Positions 146 to 20,954 of a stretch of 26,324 bases of DNA are shown here, piece by piece. Within the stretch, counting starts at the first letter, position 1. Every line of letters starts with the position of its first letter. The DNA lies in the IMG/VR virus record IMGVR_UViG_3300025598_001291, positions 1 through 26,324 of that record. One strand, 5' to 3'. The position numbers were made by a program, and so were the translations under genes. Source of the DNA: a virus. The notes under the pieces were generated by a model. It was not told the DNA's origin. It saw only the letters and a program-made list of their open reading frames with translations, and did not search any database.

Positions 146-949
146 TTAAACCTTGAGTGCGCGATCCCAAACTTGCAAGTGTAATCTGTTAGAGAATTTA
201 AAACCATACTTTTTGCAAAGCTCTGCTACTACTGGTCCAACTTCTAATAATTCTTTACGACTACCACAGCAAGGCATAATCCATACTTGCTCTGAACGTA
301 AACCTACATCTGGGTTGTTTAAATATTTTTCTAACACTTCATTTAAATCAGACTCTTGTCTTGCTACGAACTTAAAACAAGCATCTTTCTTTACTAAGAA
401 ACGTAAGACTTCTGGTTTAAAGCGCTTATCTTCAGGATCTCCATTACTTGATAGTTTTGGCGATGTTGTGTATGTAACAATACAACCAATTTGATCCCAT
501 TCTGGGTCAGGCATTAAAGTAGCATTAGTTTCAAAATCAATATGTAATGATGGTCTGTTAGTATCATCCATAGTGAGAGTTTTACTATAGTTTGCAAAAC
601 CCCAACGATCTCTAATAAATTTAACGAACTCAATTAAGTTCTTTTGCTGAATAAAAGGTTCACCACCGGTAATTTTAAGTAGAGCGCCTTGTCTTAGATT
701 CTCATCATAACCATTCTTTTCGTAAAATTGAGCAATCTCTTCAAACGTCATCTTGTTCTTCTTAGACCAGCTGACATAAGAGTCACAACCAAATGGTGCA
801 TCTTCACTTTTAAAACCGATACACGTAAGGTTGCACATAGACAATCTCATAAACACTGAAGGGTAACCGATATAACGGCCTTCACCTTCTAATGTATAAA
901 ATACGAAATCGTCTGAAAGAAATAAAGTTTTATTAGGGTCAATTGGCAT
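146..949 (-). CDS. queE: QueE-like 7-carboxy-7-deazaguanine synthase (radical SAM)
   Basis: QueE is a radical-SAM enzyme that converts 6-carboxy-tetrahydropterin to 7-carboxy-7-deazaguanine, a precursor of preQ0. The N-terminus has the family pattern FYTLEGEGRYIGYPSVFMRL (residues 17-36). It is followed by a cysteine cluster, C39 and C43 in CNLTC and then C55 in GCDSY. The SAM-binding TGGEP motif is at 94-98. The usual CX3CX2C cluster motif is here CX3CX11C, because nine extra residues lie before the third cysteine; QueE enzymes with expanded cysteine spacing are known. At 267 aa it is longer than minimal QueE (about 210-230 aa). It is 21 bases downstream of queD on the same strand, so the two probably form one operon. 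In the same genome queF, dpdA and a dpdN-like gene point to a DNA-modification role instead of tRNA queuosine. Confidence 0.9.
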   Translation of the reverse strand: MPIDPNKTLFLSDDFVFYTLEGEGRYIGYPSVFMRLSMCNLTCIGFKSEDAPFGCDSYVSWSKKNKMTFEEIAQFYEKNGYDENLRQGALLKITGGEPFIQQKNLIEFVKFIRDRWGFANYSKTLTMDDTNRPSLHIDFETNATLMPDPEWDQIGCIVTYTTSPKLSSNGDPEDKRFKPEVLRFLVKKDACFKFVARQESDLNEVLEKYLNNPDVGLRSEQVWIMPCCGSRKELLEVGPVVAELCKKYGFKFSNRLHLQVWDRALKV

Positions 950-956
950 ACGTTAT

Positions 957-965
957 TATATTATA
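957..965 (-). promoter_or_regulatory. Candidate promoter element upstream of queE (TATAATATA)
   Basis: Read on the minus strand, TATAATATA lies 7 bases before the queE ATG, in the 21-base gap after the queD stop. The same nonamer, in one or other orientation, occurs upstream of uvsY, gene 46 and gene 41. It resembles a sigma70-type -10 box but has no visible -35 partner. The region is very AT-rich, so chance occurrence is possible. Confidence 0.3.
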
Positions 966-970
966 TAAGA

Positions 971-1435
971 TTAGCTTTTCCACTCTCCATCATGAATTGT
1001 TTCAAATATAGCTGAATTGTCCGGGTGTTCCCACACTTCAACTTTAGAACACCAGCAACGACCTAATGTGAGATCATTTACAAATTCATTTGCTTCTTTA
1101 TGACAATATTCAGCAAACTTTTCAATACCTACACCGCCAGACATTATACGTAAATCTATAATCTCTTTTTTATTGAGCATTTGAAATGTTTGTAGTTCGG
1201 GATCCTTTTCCCACACTACAGTTGTATGATCAAACTGCTCTTCTAATGCTGTCTTAAGCGGTTTAAGAGCACCAAAATCTACTACCCAATTGTTATCATC
1301 TAATTGATTACATTCAAACCAGAACTTAGCTTGTAATCTATAACCATGAATAAAGTGACAGTGACTGTTTGCAAAAGGTTGGCGAAATGCGCACGACCCT
1401 AACGGAATAACTTTAGTAGAAGTGTATTTTGACAT
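971..1435 (-). CDS. queD: QueD-like 6-carboxy-tetrahydropterin synthase
   Basis: QueD converts 7,8-dihydroneopterin triphosphate to 6-carboxy-tetrahydropterin, the step before QueE. Family features are the Cys-x3-His-Gly segment (C26 to H30 in SHCHFIHGYRL), the WVVDFGALK motif (50-58), the FDH catalytic pair (D69, H70) and the VEVWEHP strand with the expected Glu (about 132-138). It is a small single-domain protein of 154 aa, slightly longer than E. coli QueD. The zinc site is unusual. The HGH motif is HGY, and the first zinc His of classical QueD (AAHRL) is not present in the aligned position (CAFRQ). C15 or H25 may substitute. queE lies directly downstream, which supports the assignment. 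Remaining doubt is whether it is catalytically standard. Confidence 0.85.
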   Translation of the reverse strand: MSKYTSTKVIPLGSCAFRQPFANSHCHFIHGYRLQAKFWFECNQLDDNNWVVDFGALKPLKTALEEQFDHTTVVWEKDPELQTFQMLNKKEIIDLRIMSGGVGIEKFAEYCHKEANEFVNDLTLGRCWCSKVEVWEHPDNSAIFETIHDGEWKS

Positions 1436-1461
1436 AACTTCATACTATAATAAAAATAATT

Positions 1462-1815
1462 TTAATCAAGCTTTTCTAAATGGTTTTGTACCCATTTTAG
1501 CAAGGTGTCTTCATCTATATCATCTGGAGCACACATCATTGCATTATTATCCGCGTCATTAGTATCAAATAAACTTCTTTGTAAAGTGCGTTTTTCTTCT
1601 TTTTCATCAATTCTGAAATATATAAATGCTCTTTTGTCTTTTATTACAGTTTTACCTGCTAAAACAAAATACATACAGTTTACTCTGCACCAAGTGCCTA
1701 ATTCATAAAATTGCAGTAAGTTTATAAAGTCATTACGGTTTTTATCCGTTTTAAAATAGATAAAAATTGGTAAGTCAATACTACTGTATGTTTTATCGCG
1801 ATACTTTATATACAC
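1462..1815 (-). CDS. Hypothetical protein, 117 aa, GTG start
   Basis: The ORF begins at a GTG (MYIKYRDKTYSS) and ends 26 bases before queD on the same strand. No ATG is available upstream in frame. The protein alternates hydrophobic beta-type segments (LPIFIYFKT, CMYFVLAGKTV, RAFIYFRID) with charged stretches. It ends in an acidic Asp/Asn-rich segment followed by a short helix (about residues 86-115). It could be a small alpha/beta protein, but I recognise no family. A late-type AATAAATA element on the minus strand lies 12 bases before the start (1828-1835), which would give a very short leader and supports the GTG start. Confidence 0.6.
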   Translation of the reverse strand: MYIKYRDKTYSSIDLPIFIYFKTDKNRNDFINLLQFYELGTWCRVNCMYFVLAGKTVIKDKRAFIYFRIDEKEEKRTLQRSLFDTNDADNNAMMCAPDDIDEDTLLKWVQNHLEKLD

Positions 1816-1827
1816 TTTATTATGGCA

Positions 1828-1842: not shown

Positions 1843-1848
1843 TAACTA

Positions 1849-2463
1849 ATGCAATCGGTAAAGCATAATAAGCAAGTAAATATAAAAGAAGCCATTATGG
1901 ATGTACCTCCACCACCTCCAATCCATTTTGACAATCCTGCAGCAATTGTACATAAAGTAAACAAACCGGCGGCTGATTTTAAGTCTTTTTACCAGGCAAG
2001 CTTTATGCCAACACCTGACTTTATCAATTATATTAAAGGTGTAGAAAACAGTACACATACAGGTTTTAAACACGGGTTGTGGCACCCACACAAAAGTGTC
2101 GAGGGCGGTACTGATACTATTGCTTATGGCCACAAACTACATCACGGTGATATTTTTAGTAAAGGTCTTACTGATGAAGAAGCAACTAAGCTTTTAATTA
2201 AAGATATAATGAAAGCTTCAGAGACAGCTAAGCACGTCATTAATAAAACTTACGGTGCTGGTGTATTTGAAAAGTTACCAACTAAAAGCAAGGAAATGTT
2301 AATAGATTTCGCATTTAATGGTGTTATTAACAAATTTCCACAATTTGTAGACGGCGTAATTAACAACGACATTGATACAATGATGACACAGTACAAACGT
2401 CACTCTAACGGCAAAGAGCTAACCGGTCGCAATCATGCATTTGCAAACCGGTACTTTAATTAA
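1849..2463 (+). CDS. Lysozyme-like muramidase (candidate endolysin)
   Basis: Residues 56-200 resemble phage lysozymes of the T4 / GH24-like fold, which cleave peptidoglycan glycan strands. FINYIKGVENS carries the likely catalytic Glu (E66). GGTDTIAYGHKLHHGD (87-101) matches the family TIGYGH segment, with T90 in the position of T4 lysozyme Thr26. The typical GLTDEEATKLLIKDI helix follows (106-120). About 44 residues precede the domain and include a run of five prolines. There is no signal peptide, so it would need a holin or could be a virion-associated lysozyme. The ATG at 1849 lies 6 bases after a late-type TATAAATA, so the transcript may be leaderless; an alternative in-frame ATG is at 1897. 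It is the only plus-strand gene in the left 4.6 kb. Its stop overlaps the stop of the convergent gene. Confidence 0.7.
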   Translation: MQSVKHNKQVNIKEAIMDVPPPPPIHFDNPAAIVHKVNKPAADFKSFYQASFMPTPDFINYIKGVENSTHTGFKHGLWHPHKSVEGGTDTIAYGHKLHHGDIFSKGLTDEEATKLLIKDIMKASETAKHVINKTYGAGVFEKLPTKSKEMLIDFAFNGVINKFPQFVDGVINNDIDTMMTQYKRHSNGKELTGRNHAFANRYFN

Positions 2464-3395: not shown

Positions 3396-3878
3396 CTACT
3401 TGCACTGGTTTAGAATATCCGGACTTATCTTGCGCTTTTTAAGGTATGTTACTAATTTCCGGTGGGAGTATTTGTTGTGATCGAAATTAAAGCGGTAATT
3501 AGTTACACTGTTAATTAATTCAGTAGATTCCCCGGATTTGCTGTATATACAATCATAATATATTGTATTAGTATATACTATTAGATTTAATGCATTTGCT
3601 ACGCTTTTAAAGTTAGATTTTATATCTTTATATGTATCTAACTTTTCGTTAATGTAAAATATTATGTTCTTTTTATGTTCTTTAAAATTTACCTGTATTT
3701 CAAGTACTTGTTGCAATATATAATAAACTAATAGCCTGCTTGCATCTTTTTTAGGTAAATCATCAGCAAACACCTGAAACTCGCTTCTTAACTTTGTTAA
3801 ATAGCTGTTTTGTATATCTTCAGCTACACTTTCAAAGTCTACTACTATCAAGTGAAGATCTGTCTGGTGATATCGCAT
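3396..3878 (-). CDS. Hypothetical protein, 160 aa
   Basis: The protein starts MRYHQTDLHLIVVDFESVAED. The strand-then-acid pattern LIVVDFE near residues 10-16 looks like the first strand of an alpha/beta fold. Further hydrophobic strands follow (NIIFYINEKL about 69-78; LNLIVYTNTIYY about 92-103) with charged helices between them. The C-terminus is basic (HRKLVTYLKKRK). This could be a small P-loop-less alpha/beta or nuclease-like protein, but no catalytic motif is convincing. It overlaps the 3' end of the GIY-YIG gene by 47 bases in another frame. No alternative ATG exists within the first half of the ORF, so the start at 3878 is preferred. Confidence 0.6.
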   Translation of the reverse strand: MRYHQTDLHLIVVDFESVAEDIQNSYLTKLRSEFQVFADDLPKKDASRLLVYYILQQVLEIQVNFKEHKKNIIFYINEKLDTYKDIKSNFKSVANALNLIVYTNTIYYDCIYSKSGESTELINSVTNYRFNFDHNKYSHRKLVTYLKKRKISPDILNQCK

Positions 3879-4329
3879 TATTGTTTATAATAACACCGTT
3901 TTCTTCTTGTGCAAGCTTTTTTAATAGTGCGTCAGGTGCTCTTCCAATACGGCAATTTATAATACCGTTGTAATATCCTTCTTTTAACAGTACATTGTTG
4001 TCAAACTGTATTTTAGCTTCGTAATATGCTAATTCAAACTTACTATCACAAAAACGCAATATTTCAAATTTAAACTTGTCTTTACCGATTTTTTTTATAT
4101 CTTCATTAACATCATTAGATGATGAAGTATAAGTCTTCCAATCTGTTTCTACGTCGAAGTGTCTTTTGTTTTTTCTTCCTTTAAGCGGTTTAAGTTTTTT
4201 AACGCTTCTAATCTGCTTTTTACCGAAATAGACCTTACCACTGACCACGTTTGTAATACGATAAATAAAACCGTAAGGCAGAATATTGTTGTTGAAAGCT
4301 TCATTTGTTGTCCAGTGGCCTAAATCCAT
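3832..4329 (-). CDS. GIY-YIG family endonuclease
   Basis: The N-terminal domain matches GIY-YIG nucleases, which cut DNA using a Tyr/Arg/Glu active site. GFIYRITN (20-27) and KVYFGKKQIRS (32-42) correspond to the GIY and YIG strands, with R41 as the likely catalytic Arg. WKTYTSSSNDVNEDIKKIGKDKF (about 64-86) and the helix with E104 (YYEAKIQFD) follow in the expected order. At 165 aa it is a nuclease domain with a short tail and no obvious separate DNA-binding module, unlike I-TevI. It could be a free-standing homing endonuclease or a domesticated repair or host-DNA-degrading nuclease. No intron or split gene is visible nearby. Its 3' end overlaps the next minus-strand gene. Confidence 0.75.
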   Translation of the reverse strand: MDLGHWTTNEAFNNNILPYGFIYRITNVVSGKVYFGKKQIRSVKKLKPLKGRKNKRHFDVETDWKTYTSSSNDVNEDIKKIGKDKFKFEILRFCDSKFELAYYEAKIQFDNNVLLKEGYYNGIINCRIGRAPDALLKKLAQEENGVIINNNAISPDRSSLDSSRL

Positions 4330-4618: not shown

Positions 4619-4622
4619 TGTT

Positions 4623-6977: not shown

Positions 6978-8019
6978 TTTAAGAATCGGTATATTTTCTG
7001 ATCCGCACTACGGTGTTCACCGTAATAGTGAAACATGGCACAAGATTGCTTTGGAGCACGCTAAGTGGGCTGCTGAGCAGTTTAAACAACAAGGCATAAA
7101 AGATATACTAATACCTGGAGACATATTTCATGATCGTAATGACATTGCTGTTAACACTCTTCACGTGGTTACTGACATTTTTGATGTATTGCGTGATTTT
7201 AACATCATTGTTACCGTGGGTAATCACGATGCTTACTACCGTGATAATTCTTCAGTTAATTCCGTATCCATACTTCGTGGCTGGAGTAATATTACTGTTA
7301 TTGATAAGCTTACGGTCGAAACGCTCCAAGGAAAGAAAATAGCATTCTGTCCATGGGGTCAAGATATTAACGAAGTACCTAAATGTGATCTAATTGTAGG
7401 TCATTTTGAAGTTAATAGCTTTAAAATGAACTCTTATAAAGTATGTACTAACGGGCTTAAGACTTCTGATTTAACTGATAGAGCACCTTTAACTATTACA
7501 GGTCACTTTCACCATAGAGAAGAACGCAAATACAAAGATGGTACTATTCTTTATGTTGGGTGCCCGTATCAACAGGATTGGGGTGATTATGGTACTACTA
7601 AAGGTTTATACATTTTAGATTTAAAAGACTTAAGTTACGAGTTTATTGTTAATAACATATCACCACGCTATAACAAGATTAAATACTCTGAAATAGCTAA
7701 TGGTGTATATACAGCTGAATCTTTAAAAGGCTTTATACGTAACAATATAGTAAAATTTTACATAGATAAACAACTTACACCTGAAGTAGTAGATAATATT
7801 GTTAGAAAGATTGCTTCAATTAAACCTGTCGAGCTTACTTTAGAATACGATTATTCAGAACTATCTAAGCTTAATGTAGAAGAAGCTAATACCAAGGATT
7901 TTAGTATTAGTGTTGAAAACTCTATATCAGAATTCATTGATTTATTAGATGTTAATCATAAGGATAAGGTAAAGAGTTACGTAACAGATTTATACCATAG
8001 AGCATTAACAATAACATGA
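6964..8019 (+). CDS. 47: gp47 recombination endonuclease subunit (SbcD/Mre11-like)
   Basis: gp47 is the nuclease subunit of the gp46-gp47 complex that resects DNA ends for recombination-dependent replication. From ATG 6964 (MTITNLRIGIFSDPHYGVH) the protein has 351 aa, against 339 in T4. All phosphoesterase motifs are seen: D13 and H15 in SDPHYG, GDIFHDRND, GNHD, GHFE and TGHFHHRE, which together bind two metal ions. A longer in-frame ORF begins at 6922 but would overlap gp55 more and add a non-homologous hydrophobic stretch, so 6964 is preferred. The partner gene 46 lies 4.3 kb downstream, separated by the glycosyltransferase island; in T4 the two are almost adjacent. Confidence 0.93.
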   Translation: MTITNLRIGIFSDPHYGVHRNSETWHKIALEHAKWAAEQFKQQGIKDILIPGDIFHDRNDIAVNTLHVVTDIFDVLRDFNIIVTVGNHDAYYRDNSSVNSVSILRGWSNITVIDKLTVETLQGKKIAFCPWGQDINEVPKCDLIVGHFEVNSFKMNSYKVCTNGLKTSDLTDRAPLTITGHFHHREERKYKDGTILYVGCPYQQDWGDYGTTKGLYILDLKDLSYEFIVNNISPRYNKIKYSEIANGVYTAESLKGFIRNNIVKFYIDKQLTPEVVDNIVRKIASIKPVELTLEYDYSELSKLNVEEANTKDFSISVENSISEFIDLLDVNHKDKVKSYVTDLYHRALTIT

Positions 8020-9592: not shown

Positions 9593-10410
9593 AAAAAGAA
9601 TTATACATAAAAGACTCTAATTTCGGTCACTGCGCGTTTAGTAATAATCCAACACCACCAGTAAGCATTTCTGAACATATAATATGGAACCGCAGCGACG
9701 CTCCACATGGAACTGATGTGGTGTGTACTGATTACCAATTAGATAAAGGCAATATTGCATGGTTATTAGAACCTTATGAAATTAACCCACAGCCATATGA
9801 GTATGTCAAAGCTAATTCAGCTTTTTATAAAGAAATATGGACACACGATAAAGAGTTTTTGTCTTTACCAAACGCTAAATGGTATCCGGTTGGAGGGTGT
9901 TGGTTAGAAGTACCTGAAAGAAAAATATATGAAAAGAGCAAAATGTTCTCTATTATAGCTTCGAACAAAAACCAACTGCCCGGTCACAAATTAAGACATC
10001 AAATAATACAAGCCGCTGGTAATAAGGTGGATGCTTTCGGTCCTTCCTATATTCAGTTTAAGAAAAACCCCATGCATAAAATAGAAGGATTAGCGGATTA
10101 CCGATATCATTTTGCAATTGAAAACTGTAAGAGAGATTTTTATTTTACAGAAAAGCTTATTGATACCTTGATGTCTGGTACAATTCCTATATACTGGGGG
10201 TGTCCTTCTATTGATAAATTCTTTAATACTGATGGTTTTATTATCTTTAATGACTTGTATGATTTAAAAGAGAAGCTTAAAAATTGTACAGTAGAATTAT
10301 ACGATAGTAAGAAAGCAGCTATTGAAGAAAACTTTAAATTAGCACAAAACTATATTTTATCAGAAGATTGGATATATAACAATATATTACAAAATGAAAA
10401 GACAATTTGA
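9589..10410 (+). CDS. GT10 family glycosyltransferase (alpha-1,3/4-fucosyltransferase-like)
   Basis: The second half has the conserved donor-binding region of GT10 fucosyltransferases: HFAIENCKRDFYFTEKLIDTL (about 174-194) then SGTIPIYWGCPSI (about 196-208), matching the FAIENS...YVTEK...G.VPI.WG family pattern. The N-terminal half is the variable acceptor domain. The length (273 aa) is that of short bacterial or viral members. The ATG at 9589 overlaps the preceding stop (ATGA). It is preceded by AGAGGGG at about 11 bases, one of few good Shine-Dalgarno matches in the window, so it is chosen over the in-frame GTG at 9577. The acceptor sugar is unknown. Confidence 0.85.
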   Translation: MKKELYIKDSNFGHCAFSNNPTPPVSISEHIIWNRSDAPHGTDVVCTDYQLDKGNIAWLLEPYEINPQPYEYVKANSAFYKEIWTHDKEFLSLPNAKWYPVGGCWLEVPERKIYEKSKMFSIIASNKNQLPGHKLRHQIIQAAGNKVDAFGPSYIQFKKNPMHKIEGLADYRYHFAIENCKRDFYFTEKLIDTLMSGTIPIYWGCPSIDKFFNTDGFIIFNDLYDLKEKLKNCTVELYDSKKAAIEENFKLAQNYILSEDWIYNNILQNEKTI

Positions 10411-10708
10411 TACAGGTGCACAAAGAGACACTGATGTTGGCAAACCAAGAGTTAGCCTGGTGCCTCATGAAGAATTAATGAGAGTGGCAAGCCACTTTGT
10501 TGTAGGCGGGCAGAAGTACGGTTTCAATAACTGGAAGAAAGGTATGAATACGTCAGTATATTATGACAGTGCACAGCGTCATTTAATGAAATACTGGCAA
10601 GGAGAAGACAGTGAGGATCATGCTGCAGCTGCTGTGTGGAATATTATGTGTATGATGTGGACGGAAAAAAATAAACCAGAATTAGACGATAGAAAAGAAT
10701 ACCAATGA
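10394..10708 (+). CDS. dATP/dGTP diphosphohydrolase-like protein (PF18909/DUF5664-type)
   Basis: This 104-aa protein has the pattern of small phage proteins annotated as dATP/dGTP diphosphohydrolase. It includes GKPRVSLVPHEELMRVASHF (16-35), KYGFNNWKKG (41-50) and the helix RHLMKYWQGEDSEDH followed by AAAAVWN (62-83). The Glu/Asp/His residues there would bind metal and nucleotide. Proteins of this all-alpha type hydrolyse dNTPs to dNMP and pyrophosphate. It lies inside the glycosyltransferase island, overlapping its neighbours by 17 and 4 bases. In this genome a dGTP-directed enzyme could relate to guanine modification, but modification by DpdA is thought to be post-replicative, so a nucleotide-pool or housekeeping role is equally possible. 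Confidence 0.7.
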   Translation: MKRQFDTGAQRDTDVGKPRVSLVPHEELMRVASHFVVGGQKYGFNNWKKGMNTSVYYDSAQRHLMKYWQGEDSEDHAAAAVWNIMCMMWTEKNKPELDDRKEYQ

Positions 10709-12286: not shown

Positions 12287-14110
12287 ATGCGTTATGTTTA
12301 TTTCAAACATTTAAAAATTACTAATTTCCTGTCTGTAGGTAAAAGACCGGTAGTTGTAGATTTTAAGCCTGGACTAAATATTATTACAGGTAAAAATTAT
12401 GATAAAGCTGATAGAGCGAATGGCGTTGGAAAGTCCACTATTGCTGACGCAGTGCATTTTGCTCTGTACGGTAGCACTATACGCGATCTTAAAAAAGAAA
12501 ACATAGTAAACGATCAAGCACCGGATCAGTTGTGTGAAGTCGAGCTTGAATTTACTTATCAGCAAGATGGTATTAATAATGAATGTCGAGTGCTAAGAAC
12601 ACTTAACCCCACTAAATGTTTCTTCTTTATTAATGGTGAAGACGTTACCAGATCTGGTGTACCGCAAACTACAGAGTTGATAGTCGACACTATTAAAACC
12701 TCTTCTGAAATATTTCAGAACAGTGTTGTTATGACAATTAATACCACTGTACCTTTCATGGCACAGAAGAAGATCGAGAAACGCAAGTTTATTGAAGGCA
12801 TACTTGGTTTAGAAGTGTTTAGTAATATGTTAAGTTTTGCACGCTTTGATTATAATGAAGCAAAACGCTTACTTGATATTGAAAGTACAAAAGTAGAAGA
12901 AACTAACAGATCTTTAGCAGACGCGATTAAACAAAAAGAAACTTATGAAGACACTAAAAAGAAAAGACTTGAAGTTCTATTAACACGTCAGTCTAACAAT
13001 GCTAAGGAACTGGCAGGTATAGATGAAAAGCTTAACAGTTTAGAGTCAGTAGATACAGTAGCAGAAAAGCAAATACAAGATAAGCTATCTACATTAAAAA
13101 CAGCTGAAACAGCATGCGACCGTAAAATAGCTACTATAAACAAGCTTATTACTGAAGCGGAAACACATATCAAACTTAATAATGATCGTATTAAAAAGCT
13201 AAAGAAGGTAGATAGTAAATGCCCTCATTGCGGTAAAGACTTAGCTGAAGCTGTAAACACTCAATATGAAAAAGATAAAGCGGAGTGTCAGACTGAAATA
13301 CAAAAGTACACAGAGGTTATTGATACACAAAAGCCGCTTTTAGTAGAAGCACAAGAGCAATTAGATAAAGTTGAAAAGGCTATAGTAACAATTCAGAAGA
13401 AAATAAACGACTTTAATATTCGTAAGAAAGAAGTAGAAAACATTAATAATCGTGTTAAGCAACTCAATGAGTGGCAATCTTCATTAGTCGTAGATATAGA
13501 TCAGCTCAACAAAGACTCTAATAACTATCAAGATATTATAGATGCTATTGTTACAAGGCAAAACGAGACTAAAAAACAAATTAGCTCTTTACAAGAAAGA
13601 ATAGATATAGTTGAGTCTGCTAAGTTTATTGTGGACGAAGAAGGAGTGAAGTCGTATATTGTTAAAAAGATACTACAAGTATTAAACATGCGTTTAGCAC
13701 AATATTTGCGTAGACTTGAAAGCAATAGTATCGTTACATTTAACGAGTTTTTTGAAGAGACTATTACCAACGAGCGTGGAAGTCAGTGTAGCTATTTTAA
13801 CTTTTCCGGTGCAGAGCGTAAAGCTATCGATCTTGCAATGTTATTTACGTTTCAAGATATCCGTAGAGCACAGGCTGATGTTTGGCTTAACTTGAGTATG
13901 TTTGATGAATTATTTGATTCATCATTGGATGAAAAAGGTATTGAGTTAGTACTTGATATTCTTAAAGAAAGGGTAGATAATTACAATGAATCAATTTATA
14001 TTATTTCTCACCGTAAAGAGAGTAAAAAATACTGTATCGGTGGTGAAATCGTATATCTTGAAAAGAAAAACGGCATAACAACAAGAACAACAACTTATGA
14101 TATTTCCTAA
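12287..14110 (+). CDS. 46: gp46 recombination endonuclease subunit (SbcC/Rad50-like ATPase)
   Basis: gp46 is the SMC-type ATPase partner of gp47. The 607-aa protein has all parts of the family. The N-terminal ATPase half carries NGVGKST (45-51). Two long coiled-coil arms (about 195-305 and 325-445) flank a zinc-hook CPHC (C312, C315). The C-terminal half holds signature FSGAERKAIDLAMLF (506-520), Walker B FDELFD (D540, E541) and the switch His in IISHRKE (H575). The P-loop contains about eight extra residues before NGVGKST (GKNYDKADRA), compared with the compact GRNGGGKST of T4. It is longer than T4 gp46 (560 aa), mainly in the arms. The following glycosyltransferase gene starts inside its 3' end. 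Confidence 0.95.
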   Translation: MRYVYFKHLKITNFLSVGKRPVVVDFKPGLNIITGKNYDKADRANGVGKSTIADAVHFALYGSTIRDLKKENIVNDQAPDQLCEVELEFTYQQDGINNECRVLRTLNPTKCFFFINGEDVTRSGVPQTTELIVDTIKTSSEIFQNSVVMTINTTVPFMAQKKIEKRKFIEGILGLEVFSNMLSFARFDYNEAKRLLDIESTKVEETNRSLADAIKQKETYEDTKKKRLEVLLTRQSNNAKELAGIDEKLNSLESVDTVAEKQIQDKLSTLKTAETACDRKIATINKLITEAETHIKLNNDRIKKLKKVDSKCPHCGKDLAEAVNTQYEKDKAECQTEIQKYTEVIDTQKPLLVEAQEQLDKVEKAIVTIQKKINDFNIRKKEVENINNRVKQLNEWQSSLVVDIDQLNKDSNNYQDIIDAIVTRQNETKKQISSLQERIDIVESAKFIVDEEGVKSYIVKKILQVLNMRLAQYLRRLESNSIVTFNEFFEETITNERGSQCSYFNFSGAERKAIDLAMLFTFQDIRRAQADVWLNLSMFDELFDSSLDEKGIELVLDILKERVDNYNESIYIISHRKESKKYCIGGEIVYLEKKNGITTRTTTYDIS

Positions 14111-15260
14111 TAACGGCTTAGTAATCGGTGCACCGCAAATGCCTCTTGGGGCACCTGCTTTTGGTAGCCCGGTGGTTGATACACCACTTCCAGTAATGGA
14201 GACACCAGGTGGTATGAAACGTGCAGTGAGTTTTGCTGCAGACCATCAAGGTTGTGGTTTCTGGCGTATGCATTGGCCTGAATCAGTTATTAATGCACAT
14301 CAATTAGGTATTATTAATAACAATAACTTTATGATTTTACAGGAGAACTTCTATCAAGGTATTTCTTCTGTAAGAATACAAAGACAAGTTACCCCCACTC
14401 AATTACAATTTGTAAAGTTCTTAAAGAGTATTTCAGAAAAAACTAATAATTTTAAGATATATTATGAAATTGACGATGTAATATTTCCTGAAGATATTCC
14501 TTTATATAATAAGGCTCGTGAAGCATTTGTTGATCCAAGTATTGGTAAAACCGCTATCGAGATAATGCAGCTATGTGATGGCATTACTGCTCCAACTGAG
14601 TATATGGCTAAGTATTATCAGGAGAAGTCAGGTGTACCTGGTATTGTATTGCCTAACTATATGCCGAAGTTCTGGATGGATAGGTTTTATAACAAGACTA
14701 AGATATCAGAAAATTACGAAACCAACAAGCGCCGACCACGTATTGGTTATATCGGTAGCCCTACACATTTTAATGTTGCAGGGGTGCCTGGAATTAAAGA
14801 CGATTTCGGTGATATATTGGATGTCATTAAGAAAACAGTCAAGCAGTTTAAATGGGTATTAATGGGCGGTTGCCCACAAGAGCTTGCAGACTATGTACGT
14901 AGTGGTGATATAGAGTATATTGGTTGGACGAAACTCTGGGATTATCCCTATGCATTCAATGCTTTAAACGTTAATATGGTAATAGCTCCATTACAGAATA
15001 ATAGGTTTAATTTAGCTAAAGCCAATATTAAACACATTGAAGCTGGTGCATTAGGTATACCTTGTGTTTGTCAAAACTTAGAACCATATAAAAACGCTCC
15101 ATTGAGATTTGATACAGCAGATGAAATGGTAAGTGTTATCAAGAAAACATTAAGTGATCGCCGTACATATCTAACCGAATCGGATATTGCTCGTAAAAAT
15201 GCTACAAAATATTGGTTAGAAGACCATATAGATGAGTATTGCAAAGTATATTTCTCTTGA
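14097..15260 (+). CDS. GT4-like (GT-B fold) glycosyltransferase
   Basis: This 387-aa protein begins with a Gly/Pro-rich stretch of about 40 residues. A GT-B type enzyme follows, from about residue 41 (KRAVSFAADHQGCGFWRMHW). The N-terminal Rossmann half contains KIYYEIDDVIFPEDIP. The C-terminal half begins RRPRIGYIGSPTH and contains a donor-site block NIKHIEAGALGIPCVCQN, matching the Glu-x-Gly/Ala-Gly-x-Pro pattern of GT4. The start overlaps gene 46 by 14 bases; a shorter start at Met40 is possible and would drop the Pro-rich tail. It lies between 46 and 43, apart from the other five glycosyltransferases, so it may serve a different acceptor. Confidence 0.75.
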   Translation: MIFPNNGLVIGAPQMPLGAPAFGSPVVDTPLPVMETPGGMKRAVSFAADHQGCGFWRMHWPESVINAHQLGIINNNNFMILQENFYQGISSVRIQRQVTPTQLQFVKFLKSISEKTNNFKIYYEIDDVIFPEDIPLYNKAREAFVDPSIGKTAIEIMQLCDGITAPTEYMAKYYQEKSGVPGIVLPNYMPKFWMDRFYNKTKISENYETNKRRPRIGYIGSPTHFNVAGVPGIKDDFGDILDVIKKTVKQFKWVLMGGCPQELADYVRSGDIEYIGWTKLWDYPYAFNALNVNMVIAPLQNNRFNLAKANIKHIEAGALGIPCVCQNLEPYKNAPLRFDTADEMVSVIKKTLSDRRTYLTESDIARKNATKYWLEDHIDEYCKVYFS

Positions 15261-15292: not shown

Positions 15293-17857
15293 GTGTATCG
15301 TAACATTTATTACAGTCAACGAGATAGTATGTGTCATCTCTTTACGTGGGATGAGAATGGTAAGCGTGTAATCAAAAAAACACCTTATCAGCCTTATTTT
15401 TATGTAGAGACAAATGCTGAAACAGCTGATGCTTTATCTATCTTTAATACTAAGTTAAAGAAAAAAGTATTTAAGAGTAACTTTGATCGTAATAAAGCTG
15501 CACAAGACGGCGCCATTAAACGTCTATATCACAATATTCAGGTAGAGCAACAATTTCTTATTGAGCAGTTTAAAGACGAATACGAAAAACCTGAGTTTTC
15601 TGCTAACCCATTAAAGGTTTGCTTTCTTGATATCGAAGTTTATTCACCGGATGAGTTCCCTGAAGCTAAGGATGCAAAGCATCCTATCAATCTGTTAACT
15701 ATATATGATAACCTTTCTGAACACTTTTATACCTGGGGTTGTAAGCCTTATACTCCGACTCGTGATAACGTTACATACACTCAATGCACAAGTGAATATA
15801 ACCTTTTAGAAAAGTTTTTAGAGTTCTGGGAAAGCGGTTATTACCCTGATATACTATCAGGGTGGAATACAGACTTTTTCGACTTCCCTTATTTAATTAA
15901 CCGTATTAATAACTTATTAGGAGAAGACGCAGCTAAGAGGTTATCCCCAGTAAAAAGTCTTTGGTGTCGTAAAGGTATCTTTGTTAAAGGTCAAGAGTTA
16001 GATCGTTGGTATATTCATGGTATATCTGCAATGGATTATCTCGAAGTGTACAGAGGTTTTGCTCGCGGTTTGTTAGAGTCGTATGCACTAAACTTTGTGG
16101 CACAACACGAATTAGGTGAAGGTAAATTAGCTATCAACGCTACCAACTTAGCTTCTCTATCTGAAAACGACTGGAATAACTTTGTAGATTATAATATTCA
16201 AGACGTTGACCTGTTAGTACGAATGGAAAAGAAACTGCAATTCTTTAAGATTATTCGTATGTTAGCTTACAAAGGACTAACCTCGTTTGAAGCAGCTTTA
16301 GGTAAAGTTTCTATTGTTACCGGGTGCGTTGCACTACAAGCATATAAACACGGTATGGTTATACCAACATTCGTTGAAGGACCTCTACGCGAGGAAATTC
16401 AGGGTGGTTTCGTAAGAGAACCAGAAAGAGGCCTACAAAAGTCTATAGTAAGTTATGACGCTAACTCACTATACCCTAATACCATTATTACCTTGAATAT
16501 ATCCCCGGAGACTAAGTTCGGTAAAATAGTTAGTAAGAGTGATACTGAAGTGGTTATTCGTTACGGTAATAACAAAGAGCAGCCACTATCGCATGAAAAG
16601 TTTATACAGTTTATGCAGGTTGAAAAACTTGCTCTATCTAAAGCAAATGTACTATACACGCAAAAGAAAAAAGGTGTGGTGCCTGCATTAATTGATGGGC
16701 TGTATAAAGAGCGTGTAACCAATAAAAATCAGTACGTCGAATTTAAAAAGAAACTAAGTAAGTTAACTACAGATACAGATGAGTACAAAACGTGTAAGTT
16801 TAATATGGAACGAGCTGACACCATTCAGCACGTTATCAAAATTCTTCTTAACTCCATTTACGGTGTTTTTGCTAATAAGTTTAGCCCTATTTGCGATAGT
16901 GATCACGCCGGTAGCATTACTCTTACTGGTCAGTCAGTGGTTAAGCAAGCAAGTGATATCATTGATCAATACGCTAAGGAAAGGTTTGGCTACACTGGTA
17001 AATCGTTAACTATATATAACGATACGGATAGTACTCACGTTACTATTCAACCTTTATTAGATCAAATGAAGTTAAACATATTAACTGAAAACAAGGTTAA
17101 TAAAGAAGGTTTAAAGTTCATTGATGACGAATTAGGTGTATATCTTAACGAACATATTAAACAATGGGCTAAAGATAAACTCAACTCAATAGACCCACGC
17201 TATTTCTTCAAACGTGAATCTATCTGTGATGTAGGAGTATACCTTGAAAAGAAACGCTACATTATACATGTATTAAATGACGAAGGTGCAGATGTTAGTA
17301 AGTTTAAATATGTTGGTGTTGAAATTGCACGTTCTACTACCCCTAAGAAAGCTAAAGAACTAATTAAAAAGGTTATTGAGAATAGCTTATTAGTACAAGA
17401 TCAAAATAAAGCAAACACTATTTATAGAGACGTTTATGATGGGTTTAAATCATTATCTATTGACGATGTAGCTATTAGAGGTGGTTTAAGTGATTTAGAA
17501 AAACATGAAGTACGTTCAGAAGGGTTTAAAATAGCTAAAGGTACACCTAATCATGTCAAAGGAGCTATTTGGTATAACATGCTATTAAAACATAGAGGGT
17601 TAGAAACAAAGTACGAACGCATTACTTCAGGTGGTAAGGTAAAGAAGATTTATATTGCGCCTAACAGGTATAATATTGATACTCTTTGCTACCCTGTTAG
17701 TTTTCCACCAGAATTAAACGATTTTCAAGTTGATTATGAAGAAATGTTCGATACAATTATAGTACCTCCAGTAAAAGCAGTTTATGAAGCTCTTAACTGG
17801 CAGTTACCACAAGTAAACAATCAAGCACAAACAGACTTATTTGACCTATTCACATGA
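15293..17857 (+). CDS. 43: Family B DNA polymerase (gp43)
   Basis: This is the replicative polymerase with 3'-5' proofreading. The 854 aa contain exo I FLDIEVYS (D113, E115; T4 D112, E114), exo II GWNTDFFDFPY (190-200) and exo III YNIQD (Y300, D304). Motif A is YDANSLYP (D389), motif B KILLNSIYG (516-524) and motif C YNDTDS (D577, D579). Motif C has Asn where most family B enzymes have Gly (GDTDS). The C-terminus, QTDLFDLFT, resembles the T4 tail that binds the sliding clamp. The GTG start gives an N-terminus (MYRNIYYSQRDS) that aligns with T4 MKEFYISIETVG; the next Met is residue 13. It is shorter than T4 gp43 (898 aa). A hairpin directly before the start suggests autoregulation. Confidence 0.97.
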   Translation: MYRNIYYSQRDSMCHLFTWDENGKRVIKKTPYQPYFYVETNAETADALSIFNTKLKKKVFKSNFDRNKAAQDGAIKRLYHNIQVEQQFLIEQFKDEYEKPEFSANPLKVCFLDIEVYSPDEFPEAKDAKHPINLLTIYDNLSEHFYTWGCKPYTPTRDNVTYTQCTSEYNLLEKFLEFWESGYYPDILSGWNTDFFDFPYLINRINNLLGEDAAKRLSPVKSLWCRKGIFVKGQELDRWYIHGISAMDYLEVYRGFARGLLESYALNFVAQHELGEGKLAINATNLASLSENDWNNFVDYNIQDVDLLVRMEKKLQFFKIIRMLAYKGLTSFEAALGKVSIVTGCVALQAYKHGMVIPTFVEGPLREEIQGGFVREPERGLQKSIVSYDANSLYPNTIITLNISPETKFGKIVSKSDTEVVIRYGNNKEQPLSHEKFIQFMQVEKLALSKANVLYTQKKKGVVPALIDGLYKERVTNKNQYVEFKKKLSKLTTDTDEYKTCKFNMERADTIQHVIKILLNSIYGVFANKFSPICDSDHAGSITLTGQSVVKQASDIIDQYAKERFGYTGKSLTIYNDTDSTHVTIQPLLDQMKLNILTENKVNKEGLKFIDDELGVYLNEHIKQWAKDKLNSIDPRYFFKRESICDVGVYLEKKRYIIHVLNDEGADVSKFKYVGVEIARSTTPKKAKELIKKVIENSLLVQDQNKANTIYRDVYDGFKSLSIDDVAIRGGLSDLEKHEVRSEGFKIAKGTPNHVKGAIWYNMLLKHRGLETKYERITSGGKVKKIYIAPNRYNIDTLCYPVSFPPELNDFQVDYEEMFDTIIVPPVKAVYEALNWQLPQVNNQAQTDLFDLFT

Positions 17858-18660
17858 TTAAAATATCTCACGAATCTCCTTTAAGTATGCTCGAGATCTC
17901 TCGTACATACAACGATTACTGCTACGCTTTAGTGCACCTCTTCGAAACTCACCCAGAATATTACAAGTTCTTTGAAGATAGTGTTAAAATGGGTAGACAT
18001 GTCTTATTAGATAATTCTATCTTTGAATTAGGTGAATCTTTTAATCCTAAACGCTATGCTTATTGGATTCAAAGACTTAACCCTACAGAGTATATCATAC
18101 CAGACGTATTGGAGGATTGTAATGGTACAATTGAGTCTGCTAAGAAATGCTTATGGAGAGAATGGGACTTTGTTAACGATTCTAAAACTATCGGCGTGGT
18201 ACAAGGTAAAACTTATGCTGAATTAGTTAAATGTTATGTAACTTTAGATCAAGAAATTGATGTAGATAAGTTAGCTATTTCATTTGACTATTCTTATTAT
18301 CTCAAACTATTTCCGCACCCTAACAAATGGGTATCTTATATGATGGGTAGAGTAATGACTCTTAATCAATTAATGAATGATGGTATTATTAATAAAGATA
18401 AAACTCATCATTTATTAGGCTGTGCACACCCAAGAGAATTTAGTTTTTATCAAGGACCTGAATATAATTGGATCGAGACGTTAGATACATCATCACCTAT
18501 TGTTCACGGTATTAAAAGAGTAAGATACTCTAATGCTATTGGTAACTGGAAAAAGGAGTCTACTAAGCTTGTAGATCTTTTAGATGTAATACCGGATGCA
18601 ATGCAAGAAAAAATCATTGCAAATAATTTAATTGAGTTTAGAAACTACGTTAATGGATGA
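17854..18660 (+). CDS. dpdA: DpdA-like DNA guanine transglycosylase (TGT superfamily)
   Basis: DpdA replaces guanine in DNA with a 7-deazaguanine base. The 268-aa protein keeps the TIM-barrel landmarks of tRNA-guanine transglycosylase in order. LLDNSIFELGE (51-61) carries D53 in the position of the TGT base-recognition Asp (SDSGGFQ). IIPDVLED (81-87) carries base-contacting acids. IGVVQGKTYAEL (113-124) equals the TGT GIVQGG loop. HLLGCAHPREF (186-196) equals YLMGVGTPEDL. ETLDTSSP holds D211 in the nucleophile position. The C-terminal CxCxxC-His zinc motif of tRNA enzymes is absent, as expected for a DNA enzyme of compact size. It overlaps gene 43 and orf76 by 4 bases each. The subfamily (possibly DpdA3) is not decided here. 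Confidence 0.82.
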   Translation: MIKISHESPLSMLEISRTYNDYCYALVHLFETHPEYYKFFEDSVKMGRHVLLDNSIFELGESFNPKRYAYWIQRLNPTEYIIPDVLEDCNGTIESAKKCLWREWDFVNDSKTIGVVQGKTYAELVKCYVTLDQEIDVDKLAISFDYSYYLKLFPHPNKWVSYMMGRVMTLNQLMNDGIINKDKTHHLLGCAHPREFSFYQGPEYNWIETLDTSSPIVHGIKRVRYSNAIGNWKKESTKLVDLLDVIPDAMQEKIIANNLIEFRNYVNG

Positions 18661-18887
18661 CAACGTTAGAAGCTATAACTAATTCCGTCCATGCTAATTA
18701 TCCCCACCTCCTGGCAAATAATATTTCTATTAGGGATTATTGTTTTTGGGATTGTATTCGTAATTGTGAAATCCCTGTAAGAGAGTTAACCGAAGTTAAA
18801 CCTTACCTAATAAAACACGGTATTATTGACTTTACACTTGTAATTTTCTTTAGTGATAATACAATAGGTTATCGCTTAAAAATATGA
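18657..18887 (+). CDS. Hypothetical protein, 76 aa, inside the deazaguanine cluster
   Basis: A short gene with ATGA overlaps to both the dpdA-like gene before it and the formyltransferase after it, so it is almost surely translated and coupled to them. The protein starts MTTLEAITNSVHANYPHLLA and contains RDYCFWDCIRNCEIP (26-40), with three Cys and two aromatic residues. It ends in a strand-rich segment (IDFTLVIFFSDNTIGYRLKI). I recognise no domain. Its placement suggests a small partner of base modification, for example a subunit of the transglycosylase or formyltransferase, but nothing in the sequence proves this. Confidence 0.6.
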   Translation: MTTLEAITNSVHANYPHLLANNISIRDYCFWDCIRNCEIPVRELTEVKPYLIKHGIIDFTLVIFFSDNTIGYRLKI

Positions 18888-19462
18888 AACGTACCCTAAT
18901 ATGGAAAACCTTTTTCTCTCAGAGCGGATCTGAGATATACGAGATATCTAAAAATATTGGTAGGTTTCCGGATGCAATCATAACTAATAAAAGCTTTGAA
19001 GAGATGGATAAAATTAATCCTGATCTCTTAGAAAAGTGTTTTGATCGTTTTATTTTCTTACCTAAGAAACCAACAGTAGAAGAATATAGAGAAGCTATAA
19101 GGAACGCTGATATAATTACCCTTCACGGCTATCTTCGTATATTACCGCCACAGATCTGCGGTAGGTTCAAGATATACAACGGACATCCAGGTCTTATAAC
19201 TAAGTTTCCTGAACTAAAAGGTAAAGACCCACAAGCTAAAGTATGGTATAAACATTTTGAAAAACCTTATAAACTACACGGGCACGTTATTCACGAAGTT
19301 ATACCAGAAGTAGATGCTGGTAGAGTGATATCCGAAAAAGAGTTCTTTAGTAACAATATCTATAACGAGTTTAACAGTTTAAACGAATATATTGGTAGAC
19401 TACATAAATTAGCAATCGAAAATTGGGTTGGCTTTATGCGCAAAAGCCTATTAAATAAATAA
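18884..19462 (+). CDS. dpdN: PurN-like formyltransferase, candidate dPreQ1 formyltransferase DpdN
   Basis: The fold is that of glycinamide ribonucleotide and methionyl-tRNA formyltransferases, which use 10-formyl-tetrahydrofolate. The N-terminal loop FFSQSGSEIYE (10-20) corresponds to the GARFT phosphate-binding SGNGSN loop. The catalytic set is present: N99 and H101 in YNGHPGLI, and D144 in PEVDAGRVIS, equal to Asn106, His108 and Asp144 of E. coli PurN. GHVIHEV matches the family G-x-T-V-H-x-V strand. At 192 aa it is close to PurN length (212 aa). It lies between the dpdA-like gene and queF. DpdN, a formyltransferase predicted to make 7-(formylamino)methyl-7-deazaguanine in phage DNA, is the best fit. 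A purine-biosynthesis or sugar N-formyltransferase remains possible. Confidence 0.75.
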   Translation: MKRTLIWKTFFSQSGSEIYEISKNIGRFPDAIITNKSFEEMDKINPDLLEKCFDRFIFLPKKPTVEEYREAIRNADIITLHGYLRILPPQICGRFKIYNGHPGLITKFPELKGKDPQAKVWYKHFEKPYKLHGHVIHEVIPEVDAGRVISEKEFFSNNIYNEFNSLNEYIGRLHKLAIENWVGFMRKSLLNK

Positions 19463-19465
19463 CTT

Positions 19466-20044
19466 ATGAGATCAAATTATAAAGCTGCAATCTGTGGTGC
19501 TCATTCACAAGGCAAAACTACTTTGGTTAAAGCTCTAAAAGAGAATGCTAATCTTACAAGTGATTATCATTTTAGTTTTAGAACTAATTTAACAAGAGGT
19601 TTAAAAGATCTTAATGTACCTATTAATGAAGGTGGTACCTCTTTAACTCAATATCTGGTAATGTCTCGTCATTTAGAGTATGGTTTAACTCCAGGTAACT
19701 GGATCTTAGATAGAGGTGCTTTAGATGGGATTGCATATACAACTTATTTTTATGAAAAAGGACAAGTACATAAAGATGTTTATCAAGCTGCTTTAGTTGT
19801 ATACGAAGAAATGTTAAGGACTTATGATAAGATTTTTTATGTTGTACCTGAACTTAGTATCAAAGAAGACGGAGAAAGAAGTACAGGTAAAGAGTTTTTT
19901 GATGGTGTTGTAAATCAATTTGATTTTTATCTTAAACATCATTCAATGCCTGCTGATAAACTTGTTTATGTAATGGGATCATTAGAAGACAGAACTAAAA
20001 TTGTAATTGATAATATAAAGAAAGATTTTACCAATGAGTTATAA
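19466..20044 (+). CDS. P-loop nucleotide kinase-like protein (AAA_28/NadR-like)
   Basis: The 192-aa protein has a Walker A motif GAHSQGKTT (11-19) at the very N-terminus. A lid/DR-type motif NWILDRGALDGIAYTTYF follows (about 78-95), of the kind seen in thymidylate-kinase-like and NadR nicotinamide-riboside-kinase-like proteins. A strand KIFYVVPELSI carries a Walker B-type position. It resembles the AAA_28 group more than T4 dNMP kinase. The substrate is unknown; a nucleoside, nucleotide or deazaguanine derivative would fit the context. It is 3 bases after the formyltransferase and overlaps queF by 11 bases, so it is part of the same transcription unit. Confidence 0.7.
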   Translation: MRSNYKAAICGAHSQGKTTLVKALKENANLTSDYHFSFRTNLTRGLKDLNVPINEGGTSLTQYLVMSRHLEYGLTPGNWILDRGALDGIAYTTYFYEKGQVHKDVYQAALVVYEEMLRTYDKIFYVVPELSIKEDGERSTGKEFFDGVVNQFDFYLKHHSMPADKLVYVMGSLEDRTKIVIDNIKKDFTNEL

Positions 20045-20954
20045 TACTAATAATATTGACAAAGTACTTGGTCAGAGAGTTGATTCTCCTACCACCTACA
20101 CGCCTGAGATTTTAGTGCGTGAAGAACGCCAACGTAATCGTACCTATTTAGGTTTACAGAACGATTCTTTACCATTCGTAGGTTACGATATTTGGAACGG
20201 TTATGAATGTAGTGCATTAACAGATAATGGTTTACCAGTTACATGCGTAGCTAAGGTAATTTATTCTGCTACTAATGATTTCATTGTTGAATCTAAATCA
20301 ATGAAGCTTTACTGGAACTCATTTAACATGCAAAAGATGGGTAAGAATACTAAAGAAGTACTTAAGAACATTAAGCAAACAGCTTCTAAGGACTTATCTC
20401 TATTATTAGAAACTGATGTTAAAGTAGAGCTATTTCCACAAATTATAGATATTACTACTGAAGAAGCGCGTAATGTTTGGCTCGGAGATTATAATCCGCA
20501 GTCATGGTTAGCTCTCGAAAAGATTAAAAGTGCTGAAAAGGTTAAATTTACAGTGTTTAACGAGAATGCTGATCTTTTAGTTGCAAACGACGCTGAAGTG
20601 TCTAAACCTCATTTCTATATGAGTACTTTATTACGTTCTAACTGTAAGATTACTAAGCAGCCAGATTCTGGTGATATCTTTATTTATTATAAAGGTGATA
20701 AAGAAGTAACAGAACAATCCTTATTAGAGTGGATCGTATCATTCCGTAATGAATGTCATTTCCATGAAGAAATATGTGAAGCTGCTTATAAACGTTTATG
20801 GGACTTGTTACAACCAGAAGAGCTTATGGTGACTTGTTTCTATGCTCGTCGTGGTGGTTGGGATATTGTTCCTACTCGCGCATCAAATAAAAAATTACTT
20901 GATCAAAATCTTATCAACATAAAGTTCCCGTACTTTAAATTTCCTCGTCAATAA
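20034..20954 (+). CDS. queF: QueF NADPH-dependent 7-cyano-7-deazaguanine reductase
   Basis: QueF reduces the nitrile of preQ0 to the aminomethyl group of preQ1. The 306-aa protein is of the long, two-domain type of E. coli QueF (282 aa). It has LPFVGYDIWNGYECSAL (46-62), the NADPH motif ESKSMKLYWNSFN (86-98) and LLRSNCKITKQPDSGD (199-214) with nucleophile C204 and acid D211. The preQ0-binding WIVSFRNECHFHEE (233-246) includes E245, and RRGG is at 272-275. All catalytic residues are intact. The ATG overlaps the preceding kinase gene by 11 bases. Because preQ1 in DNA is known only from phages encoding QueF, the gene predicts preQ1 or a derivative in this phage's DNA. Confidence 0.95.
   Translation: MSYNTNNIDKVLGQRVDSPTTYTPEILVREERQRNRTYLGLQNDSLPFVGYDIWNGYECSALTDNGLPVTCVAKVIYSATNDFIVESKSMKLYWNSFNMQKMGKNTKEVLKNIKQTASKDLSLLLETDVKVELFPQIIDITTEEARNVWLGDYNPQSWLALEKIKSAEKVKFTVFNENADLLVANDAEVSKPHFYMSTLLRSNCKITKQPDSGDIFIYYKGDKEVTEQSLLEWIVSFRNECHFHEEICEAAYKRLWDLLQPEELMVTCFYARRGGWDIVPTRASNKKLLDQNLINIKFPYFKFPRQ

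What the first reader, a model, noticed from the sequence alone, without database searches (positions are those of the whole stretch)
146..20954. Split but nearly complete pathway for formylated preQ1 in phage DNA
QueD and QueE (left), DpdA-like transglycosylase, PurN-like formyltransferase and QueF (right) occur in one T4-like genome fragment. Known chemistry orders them as QueD, QueE, (QueC, not seen), QueF, DpdA, DpdN. QueF implies preQ1, and the formyltransferase implies the formylamino derivative. From published work on 7-deazaguanine DNA modifications (Cui, Hutinet, de Crecy-Lagard and co-workers) I recall DpdA subfamilies including one allowing full guanine replacement, and a predicted dPreQ1 formyltransferase DpdN. 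A T4-like phage carrying this whole set next to its own replication genes would be a strong system for testing how the replisome tolerates such DNA.
Basis: partly seen in the sequence, partly recalled or inferred. Interest (0 to 1): 0.9.

Follow-up and report, generated by a model that had tools for sequence, protein, structure and literature searches.

The report
Phage gene set for altered guanine
This phage fragment carries genes that probably swap the guanine in the phage's DNA for a capped look-alike base, and relatives suggest that the swap involves a partner kinase and that the chemical cap can vary.

Summary
A 99.94% identical contig carries FolE 2.2 kb to the right and a cut QueC 4.0 kb to the left. 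The transglycosylase is closest to those of Flavobacterium phage immuto, with the same gene order, and Campylobacter phage CP220, whose guanine is reported 100% replaced. So: a new member of the DpdA3/DpdN kind; fdPreQ1 is the likely product, unmeasured.

This fits exchange on free nucleotides before replication; recalled pool data argue against it. (2) In 3 of 95 loci QueF stays but PurN is missing; GNAT or amidoligase-like domains, some weakly matched, lie between DpdA and QueF, hinting at exchangeable N-acyl caps. Function is inferred throughout.

The parts
146..949 (-). QueE-like 7-carboxy-7-deazaguanine synthase (radical SAM)
   Evidence: phrog_2076 E 1e-41; several QueE NCBIfam models below their cut-offs; three Cys kept, CX3CX11C
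971..1435 (-). QueD-like 6-carboxytetrahydropterin synthase
   Evidence: PF01242 E 6.4e-18; phrog_2389 E 7.6e-37
15293..17857 (+). T4-like DNA polymerase (gp43); its end overlaps the DpdA start by 4 bases
   Evidence: phrog_262 E 3.8e-190; junctions computed
17854..18660 (+). DpdA3-type guanine transglycosylase, TGT core without the CxCxxC motif
   Evidence: 49% identical to annotated DpdA of immuto, 42-43% to CP220 group; TGT fold Z 17.8; D53, D84, Q117, G118, G189, D211 in 50 of 50, CxCxxC in 0 of 50
18657..18887 (+). small ORF of unknown function in the same gene run
   Evidence: no Pfam hit; homologues in the same place in 8 of 49 representative loci
18884..19462 (+). PurN-like formyltransferase, candidate DpdN
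   Evidence: PF00551 E 9.7e-8; family profile to PurN structures E 2.3e-15; N99, H101, D144 in 37 of 37
19466..20044 (+). small P-loop kinase of the dNK/TMPK/NadR fold, proposed partner of DpdA3
   Evidence: PF13521 E 3.6e-10; model pLDDT 89.9, Z 14.5-16.0 in the 50 rows shown, to NadR, dGK, dCK, dAK and TMPK; small P-loop ORF near DpdA3 in 93 of 95 distinct genes, this kinase family by profile in 90 of 95
20034..20954 (+). QueF, preQ0 reductase to preQ1
   Evidence: PF14819 and PF14489, TIGR03138 E 1.4e-65, below its cut-off; SNC...QPD and ESKS.K kept
10394..10708 (+). possible dATP/dGTP diphosphohydrolase domain protein; link to the cassette uncertain
   Evidence: PF18909 E 1.2e-25; present in only 3 of 21 records searched

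Best explanation
A DNA-base replacement cassette. FolE, QueD, QueE and QueC make preQ0 from GTP; QueF reduces it to preQ1; DpdA3 exchanges guanine for the 7-deazaguanine base; the PurN-like enzyme formylates the free aminomethyl nitrogen, giving 7-(formylamino)methyl-7-deazaguanine in phage DNA, probably as a shield against host nucleases. Shown: the genes, their order and packing, two predicted folds, conserved residues, FolE and QueC outside the window in a near-identical contig, and the kinase linkage. Inferred: the chemistry, the order of formylation and insertion, and the purpose. For the insertion step I favour, at about 0.45, exchange on a free deoxyguanosine nucleotide (or nucleoside), after which the neighbouring kinase phosphorylates the modified product towards a triphosphate that the polymerase uses; exchange in finished DNA has about 0.40. 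The confidence below is for the cassette as a whole, not for that step.
For: Genes and families. Same order in immuto, whose DpdA is so annotated. FolE and QueC in the 99.94% identical contig; QueC in 11 of 13 and FolE in 11 of 13 larger records. TGT fold. Small P-loop ORF near DpdA3 in 93 of 95 distinct genes with at least 4 kb downstream, PurN in 85 of 95, QueF in 85 of 95. PurN and QueF go together: both 82, PurN only 3, QueF only 3, neither 7. The 3 with QueF only have GNAT, HAD-GNAT or amidoligase-like proteins between DpdA and QueF (L212's GNAT and L329's amidoligase match below cut-off), which fits a cap on the preQ1 nitrogen. 100% of dG is reported replaced in CP220 (PMC8306585, discussion section read).
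Against: No chemistry was measured. Sequence profiles of DpdA3 and of DpdA1 or DpdA2 do not match, so DNA guanine transglycosylase activity rests on fold, context and relatives. QueF against QueF-L is not settled: KVP40's homologue, 42% identical with the same motifs, is listed as 'QueF or QueF-L' in PMC8056088 (passage). Against the nucleotide-level step: I recall from the abstract of Crippen 2019 (not held) that no dADG phosphate was found in pools of firehammervirus-infected cells; Cui 2023 (recalled abstract) concludes insertion after replication; PMC12783734 (passages) places DpdA at the nucleic acid level. A dGTP-removing enzyme, expected for a nucleotide route, is not universal. Net charge does not separate the DpdA types. 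The kinase also occurs away from DpdA: second copies in CP220 and CC_R7, weak relatives in controls KVP40 and nt-1.
Confidence: 0.8

Rival explanations
1. Same cassette, but DpdA3 exchanges guanine in finished DNA, as proposed for other DpdA types; the kinase serves nucleotide supply or another unknown role.
For: TGT-family enzymes act on polynucleotides (general knowledge); held literature places DpdA at the nucleic acid level (passages); recalled pool data for Campylobacter phages found no dADG phosphate.
Against: A small P-loop ORF is near DpdA3 in 93 of 95 distinct genes and in the window and all six named phages examined, with kinase types that match different Pfam families or almost none. 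Among 15 DpdA1 and DpdA2 controls one ORF has the motif and no Pfam kinase match. Background is 2 such ORFs in 380.5 kb of DpdA3 contigs more than 5 kb from DpdA.
Confidence: 0.4
2. The PurN-like protein is an ordinary glycinamide ribonucleotide formyltransferase that boosts purine supply; the DNA base is plain preQ1.
For: Its family profile matches PurN structures best; Prochlorococcus phage P-SSM7 carries a PurN-like gene.
Against: It lies between DpdA and the kinase, in 82 of 85 cases with QueF within about 5 kb, and in the 3 loci with QueF but without it other acyl or amide type domains are found in the cassette. Its closest named relative is in immuto next to DpdA; other phage hits are weak.
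Confidence: 0.1
3. The genes modify host tRNA with queuosine precursors rather than phage DNA.
For: All preQ1 enzymes are shared with queuosine synthesis, and the transglycosylase has the TGT fold.
Against: The protein lacks the CxCxxC motif that I recall for tRNA TGTs in 50 of 50 rows, is closest to those of phages annotated for, or reported to have, deazaguanine DNA, and its gene overlaps that of the DNA polymerase. No QueA or QueG was looked for.
Confidence: 0.05

Closest known systems
Flavobacterium phage immuto (Immutovirus, MW353175)
   Same: DpdA, small ORF, PurN-like, thymidylate-kinase-like, QueF in the same order; QueC, QueD, QueE and FolE upstream
   Different: Family A DNA polymerase after QueF and an NTP pyrophosphohydrolase before DpdA; the window is T4-like with gp43 before DpdA. 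Identity: DpdA 49-52%, PurN-like 43-47%, QueF 43%, kinase 33%, QueE 27%
Campylobacter phage CP220 and relatives (Firehammervirus)
   Same: Related DpdA (42-43%) with a related kinase just downstream
   Different: No PurN or QueF nearby; reported base is dADG, 100% of dG (PMC8306585)
DpdA3 and DpdN as described by Cui et al. 2023 (recalled abstract; paper not held)
   Same: Transglycosylase class linked to complete guanine replacement, and predicted dPreQ1 formyltransferase
   Different: The kinase linkage and the loci without PurN are not in what I recall; could not be checked
Z-DNA (PurZ) and T4 hydroxymethylcytosine routes
   Same: Proposed logic of the favoured insertion step: modify a monophosphate, then phosphorylate (PMC12783734 passage for Z; T4 recalled)
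   Different: Here the modifying step would be base exchange, and no constant dNTP-removing enzyme was found

Membership tests
DpdA3-type guanine transglycosylase | TGT fold | tested here: met
   Z 17.8, rmsd 3.0, 233 of 268 residues to 1iq8; Foldseek E 2.1e-8
DpdA3-type guanine transglycosylase | Catalytic aspartates of the TGT type | tested here: inconclusive
   D53, D84 and D211 in 50 of 50 rows; equivalence to TGT residues is by motif from recall, not by superposed coordinates
DpdA3-type guanine transglycosylase | Groups with the transglycosylase of a fully replaced phage | tested here: met
   Only immuto-type and CP220-type hits reach 42-49% among 26 matching records of 50,697; no tree was made
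DpdA3-type guanine transglycosylase | Puts deazaguanine in DNA | not testable with these tools
   Needs enzymology or mass spectrometry
DpdN (dPreQ1 formyltransferase) | Formyltransferase domain with N-H-D triad | tested here: met
   PF00551 E 9.7e-8; triad 37 of 37 (that this is the PurN triad is recalled)
DpdN (dPreQ1 formyltransferase) | Identity with the published DpdN sequence | not tested
   Paper not held
QueF | Both QueF domains with SNC/QPD and ESKS.K motifs | tested here: met
   meaning of the motifs recalled; score below the TIGR03138 cut-off
QueF | Reductase rather than QueF-L | tested here: inconclusive
   KVP40's homologue shares the motifs and is listed as QueF or QueF-L (PMC8056088 passage)
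dNK/TMPK/NadR kinase superfamily | P-loop kinase fold | tested here: met
   Z about 15-16 to NadR, dGK, dCK, TMPK; G11, G16, K17, R44, R83, D87, R138, R176 invariant in 45 rows
dNK/TMPK/NadR kinase superfamily | Substrate: nucleoside or monophosphate | tested here: inconclusive
   Glu at position 41 in 32 of 45, Asn in the window protein, R44 in 45 of 45; not decisive
Nucleotide-level base replacement pathway | Enzyme that removes the canonical dNTP | tested here: inconclusive
   Of 21 records, 4 of them controls: PF18909 in 3, PRA-PH in 4 including control pf16, MazG in 2, PF04447 in 1 below cut-off; PRA-PH-type gene cluster in 28 of 49 loci, HD domain beside DpdA in CP220

The most novel reading that the evidence does not exclude
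DpdA3 is not a DNA-editing enzyme but a nucleotide base-exchanger: it swaps guanine on free deoxyguanosine nucleotides for preQ1-type bases, and the dedicated kinase feeds the product to the replisome, which explains complete guanine replacement. On top of this the aminomethyl nitrogen carries an exchangeable acyl cap: formyl in most of these phages, and acetyl or larger acyl or amide groups in lineages where GNAT, HAD-GNAT or amidoligase-like enzymes stand in for PurN, giving DNA bases not yet described as far as I know.
Probability: 0.35. Interest if true: 0.88.

Novelty: new variant of a known kind. Interest (0 to 1): 0.66.

Why it matters
Whether deazaguanine enters phage DNA before or after replication was called unknown for phage MED16 in 2021 (PMC8306585); the later view that it is after replication (recalled abstract of Cui 2023; PMC12783734 passages) would be put to the test by a kinase that constantly accompanies the DpdA type tied to complete replacement. 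Two purified proteins would decide. Exchangeable N-acyl caps would add a family of new DNA bases. The T4-like setting would also show how a well understood replisome copies DNA without normal guanine.

Tried and rejected
Net charge and pI of DpdA1, DpdA2 and DpdA3 were compared in the hope of telling DNA-binding from nucleotide-binding enzymes; they overlap. Profile comparison of DpdA3 with DpdA1 and DpdA2 gave probabilities of 0.7% and 13%, the second with a wrong-looking alignment. A universal dGTP-removing enzyme was sought with four Pfam families and not found; PRA-PH also occurs in control pf16, so it is not specific. The kinase profile A8 misses the kinases of Youna2, BSTP8 and MA9V-3, which were seen by the P-loop motif and Pfam; for Youna2 and BSTP8 all Pfam hits are below cut-offs. 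A8 also finds weak hits far from DpdA2 in controls KVP40 and nt-1, and second copies in CP220 and CC_R7. Alignment A1 was too diverse to scan; the single BSTP8 protein and alignment A6 gave no viral relatives. PDB sequence search with DpdA3 gave only unrelated weak hits. The formyltransferase was not folded because only two structure jobs were allowed.

Limits of the counts. 143 distinct genes means not identical, not independent; 48 with under 4 kb downstream were dropped; the 95 include named phages. Presence by profile was counted from 4 kb before to 5 kb after, P-loop ORFs within 4 kb. The 15 controls were chosen by me from 70 DpdA2 and 226 DpdA1 records, with 9g and KVP40 fetched first; their P-loop scan used 110-270 residue ORFs, one search used 110-330. 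One control ORF (L254) has the motif; it has no Pfam match at E 0.05, though BSTP8's and Youna2's proteins match Pfam little better. Over the whole control loci 4 motif ORFs occur in 242.8 kb. The two cases without a kinase, L241 and L331, have 1.14 and 0.79 kb upstream before the contig ends. The Fisher value of 4.7e-5 for 7 of 7 against 1 of 15 treats phages as independent.
Full report
Observation. The window is the whole of a 26,324-base virus record. QueE and QueD lie on the minus strand at the left; DpdA-like, PurN-like and QueF on the plus strand at the right. The setting is T4-like by PHROGs matches: helicase, late sigma factor, SbcD- and SbcC-like subunits, DNA polymerase, UvsX-like recombinase, DnaB-like helicase and single-strand binding protein. 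QueC gives no match in the record.

The missing steps. The window is 99.94% identical over its full length to bases 4283-30606 of an 82 kb virus contig. That contig has FolE at 32768-33301, 2.2 kb beyond the right end of the window, and a QueC match cut by the contig's end at 7-264, 4.0 kb beyond the left end. Of 13 larger records of relatives (two of them named phages), 11 have QueC and 11 have FolE. So the preQ0 and preQ1 pathway looks complete in this phage group.

The gene run. gp43 and dpdA overlap by 4 bases, dpdA and a 76-residue ORF by 4, that ORF and purN by 4; purN and the kinase are 3 bases apart; kinase and queF overlap by 11.

The transglycosylase. Pfam's TGT family gives only E 0.2, but the structure model (pLDDT 93.9) matches TGT structures at Z 17.8. 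D53, D84, Q117, G118, G189 and D211 are invariant in 50 of 50 aligned relatives, and none of the 50 has a CxCxxC motif; that these are the TGT catalytic residues is by motif and recall. Of 50,697 phage records 26 match: immuto at 49%, the CP220 group at 42-43%, and weaker ones in Bacillus, Weizmannia, Chryseobacterium and Campylobacter phage CC_R7. PMC8306585 (discussion section read) reports 100% replacement of dG by dADG in CP220 and CPt10, against small amounts of dADG in four others and about 30% dPreQ1 in HVTV-1; a passage gives 7.55% dG+ in Vid5. I recall from the Cui 2023 abstract that the class allowing complete replacement is DpdA3; the paper is not held.

Conservation of the block. 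Immuto has NTP pyrophosphohydrolase, small ORF, DpdA, small ORF, PurN-like, thymidylate-kinase-like, QueF in that order, with QueC, QueD, QueE and FolE upstream. Scans of IMG/VR confirmed 506 stretches with a window-type query and 590 with an immuto-type query, best 80 kept each time. Over all loci there are 143 distinct genes; 95 have at least 4 kb downstream. Of these 95, a small P-loop ORF is near in 93, the kinase family by profile in 90, PurN in 85 and QueF in 85. The two without a kinase, L241 and L331, have 1.14 and 0.79 kb of upstream sequence before the contig ends.

The kinase. Its model (pLDDT 89.9) matches NadR, deoxyguanosine kinase, deoxycytidine kinase and thymidylate kinase at Z 14.5 to 16.0 in the 50 rows shown. 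The window and all six named DpdA3-type phages examined have a small P-loop ORF within 0.81 kb of DpdA; of 15 DpdA1 and DpdA2 controls one has a motif match, which has no Pfam match. KVP40.0122 is named DpdA2 in PMC8056088 (passage). Further than 5 kb from DpdA the DpdA3 contigs have 2 such ORFs in 380.5 kb; whole control loci have 4 in 242.8 kb. The kinases are not of one kind: AAA_28 in the window and CC_R7, AAA_18/33 in MA9V-3, and poorly matched P-loop proteins in BSTP8 and Youna2. The kinase is there whether the pathway makes a formylated base or, as in CP220, another. This ties it to insertion rather than to the cap. The simplest mechanism is base exchange on a free nucleotide followed by phosphorylation. 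Against it stand the recalled pool data of Crippen 2019, the recalled conclusion of Cui 2023, the view in PMC12783734 (passages), the lack of a constant dGTP-removing enzyme, and copies of the kinase away from DpdA in CP220 and CC_R7. A pyrophosphohydrolase-type gene family is found in 28 of 49 representative loci and a phosphoribosyltransferase, which could recycle released guanine, in 30 of 49 (Pfam checked on two members of the first, and one of the second). The Pfam family of the first also occurs in control pf16.

The cap. PurN and QueF go together: both 82, PurN only 3, QueF only 3, neither 7 of 95; one of the three PurN-only loci, L135, has QueF further away. In the three QueF-only loci other proteins stand between DpdA and QueF: in L212 the kinase carries a C-terminal stretch with a weak GNAT match (E 0.0023, below cut-off); in L194 (also L192 and L334) a 508-residue HAD-GNAT protein (GNAT E 2.8e-11; the HAD match is below cut-off) and a glyoxalase-like protein lie where PurN would be; in L329 an amidoligase-like protein (E 0.0021, below cut-off) lies before the kinase and a GNAT protein (E 2e-8) after it. 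L328, a 3.8 kb contig not counted above, has DpdA, kinase, QueF and QueC with nothing in the slot. Such enzymes typically act on amines, which QueF provides. I read this as exchangeable acyl or amide caps; it is an inference from position and family.

Novelty. The system is a new member of the DpdA3/DpdN kind; Immutovirus is already noted for genes of modified nucleotides (PMC11500664, passage). The constant kinase and the exchangeable cap were not found in the held library by the searches, of which I read listings and the passages cited; the two key papers could not be read, so this is no proof that they are unpublished.

Verdict. Observation confirmed; interpretation partly supported and extended; function inferred.

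Noticed in passing
window 8016-12242 and 14097-15260: Five supported glycosyltransferase-like genes, and a sixth (11460-12242) so called only by its look, sit among the replication genes, including family 11 (E 9.2e-25) and family 10 fucosyltransferase-like (E 2.1e-11) proteins. Whether they act on DNA, capsid or host surface is unknown.
   Followed up: partly
window 3832-4329 (-): SegE-like GIY-YIG homing endonuclease (PF19835 E 2.4e-29).
   Followed up: no
L194 6146-6871, L178 10844-11434, L174 7571-8350, L171 5045-5677: Homing-endonuclease-like ORFs, by their look, are inserted after DpdA in several relatives; NUMOD3 confirmed by Pfam for L194 only.
   Followed up: partly
window 1849-2463 (+): Phage lysozyme-like gene with a proline-rich start, at the left between minus-strand genes.
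   Followed up: no
window 23916-24848 (+): DHH/DHHA1 phosphoesterase next to the DnaB-like helicase.
   Followed up: no
L241 2451-2708: A DUF3310 protein (E 2.2e-13) lies where the kinase normally sits between PurN and QueF.
   Followed up: partly
L002 18862-19893 (CP220): An HD-domain plus P-loop protein lies directly before DpdA, besides the kinase after it; a possible dNTP hydrolase-kinase fusion.
   Followed up: no
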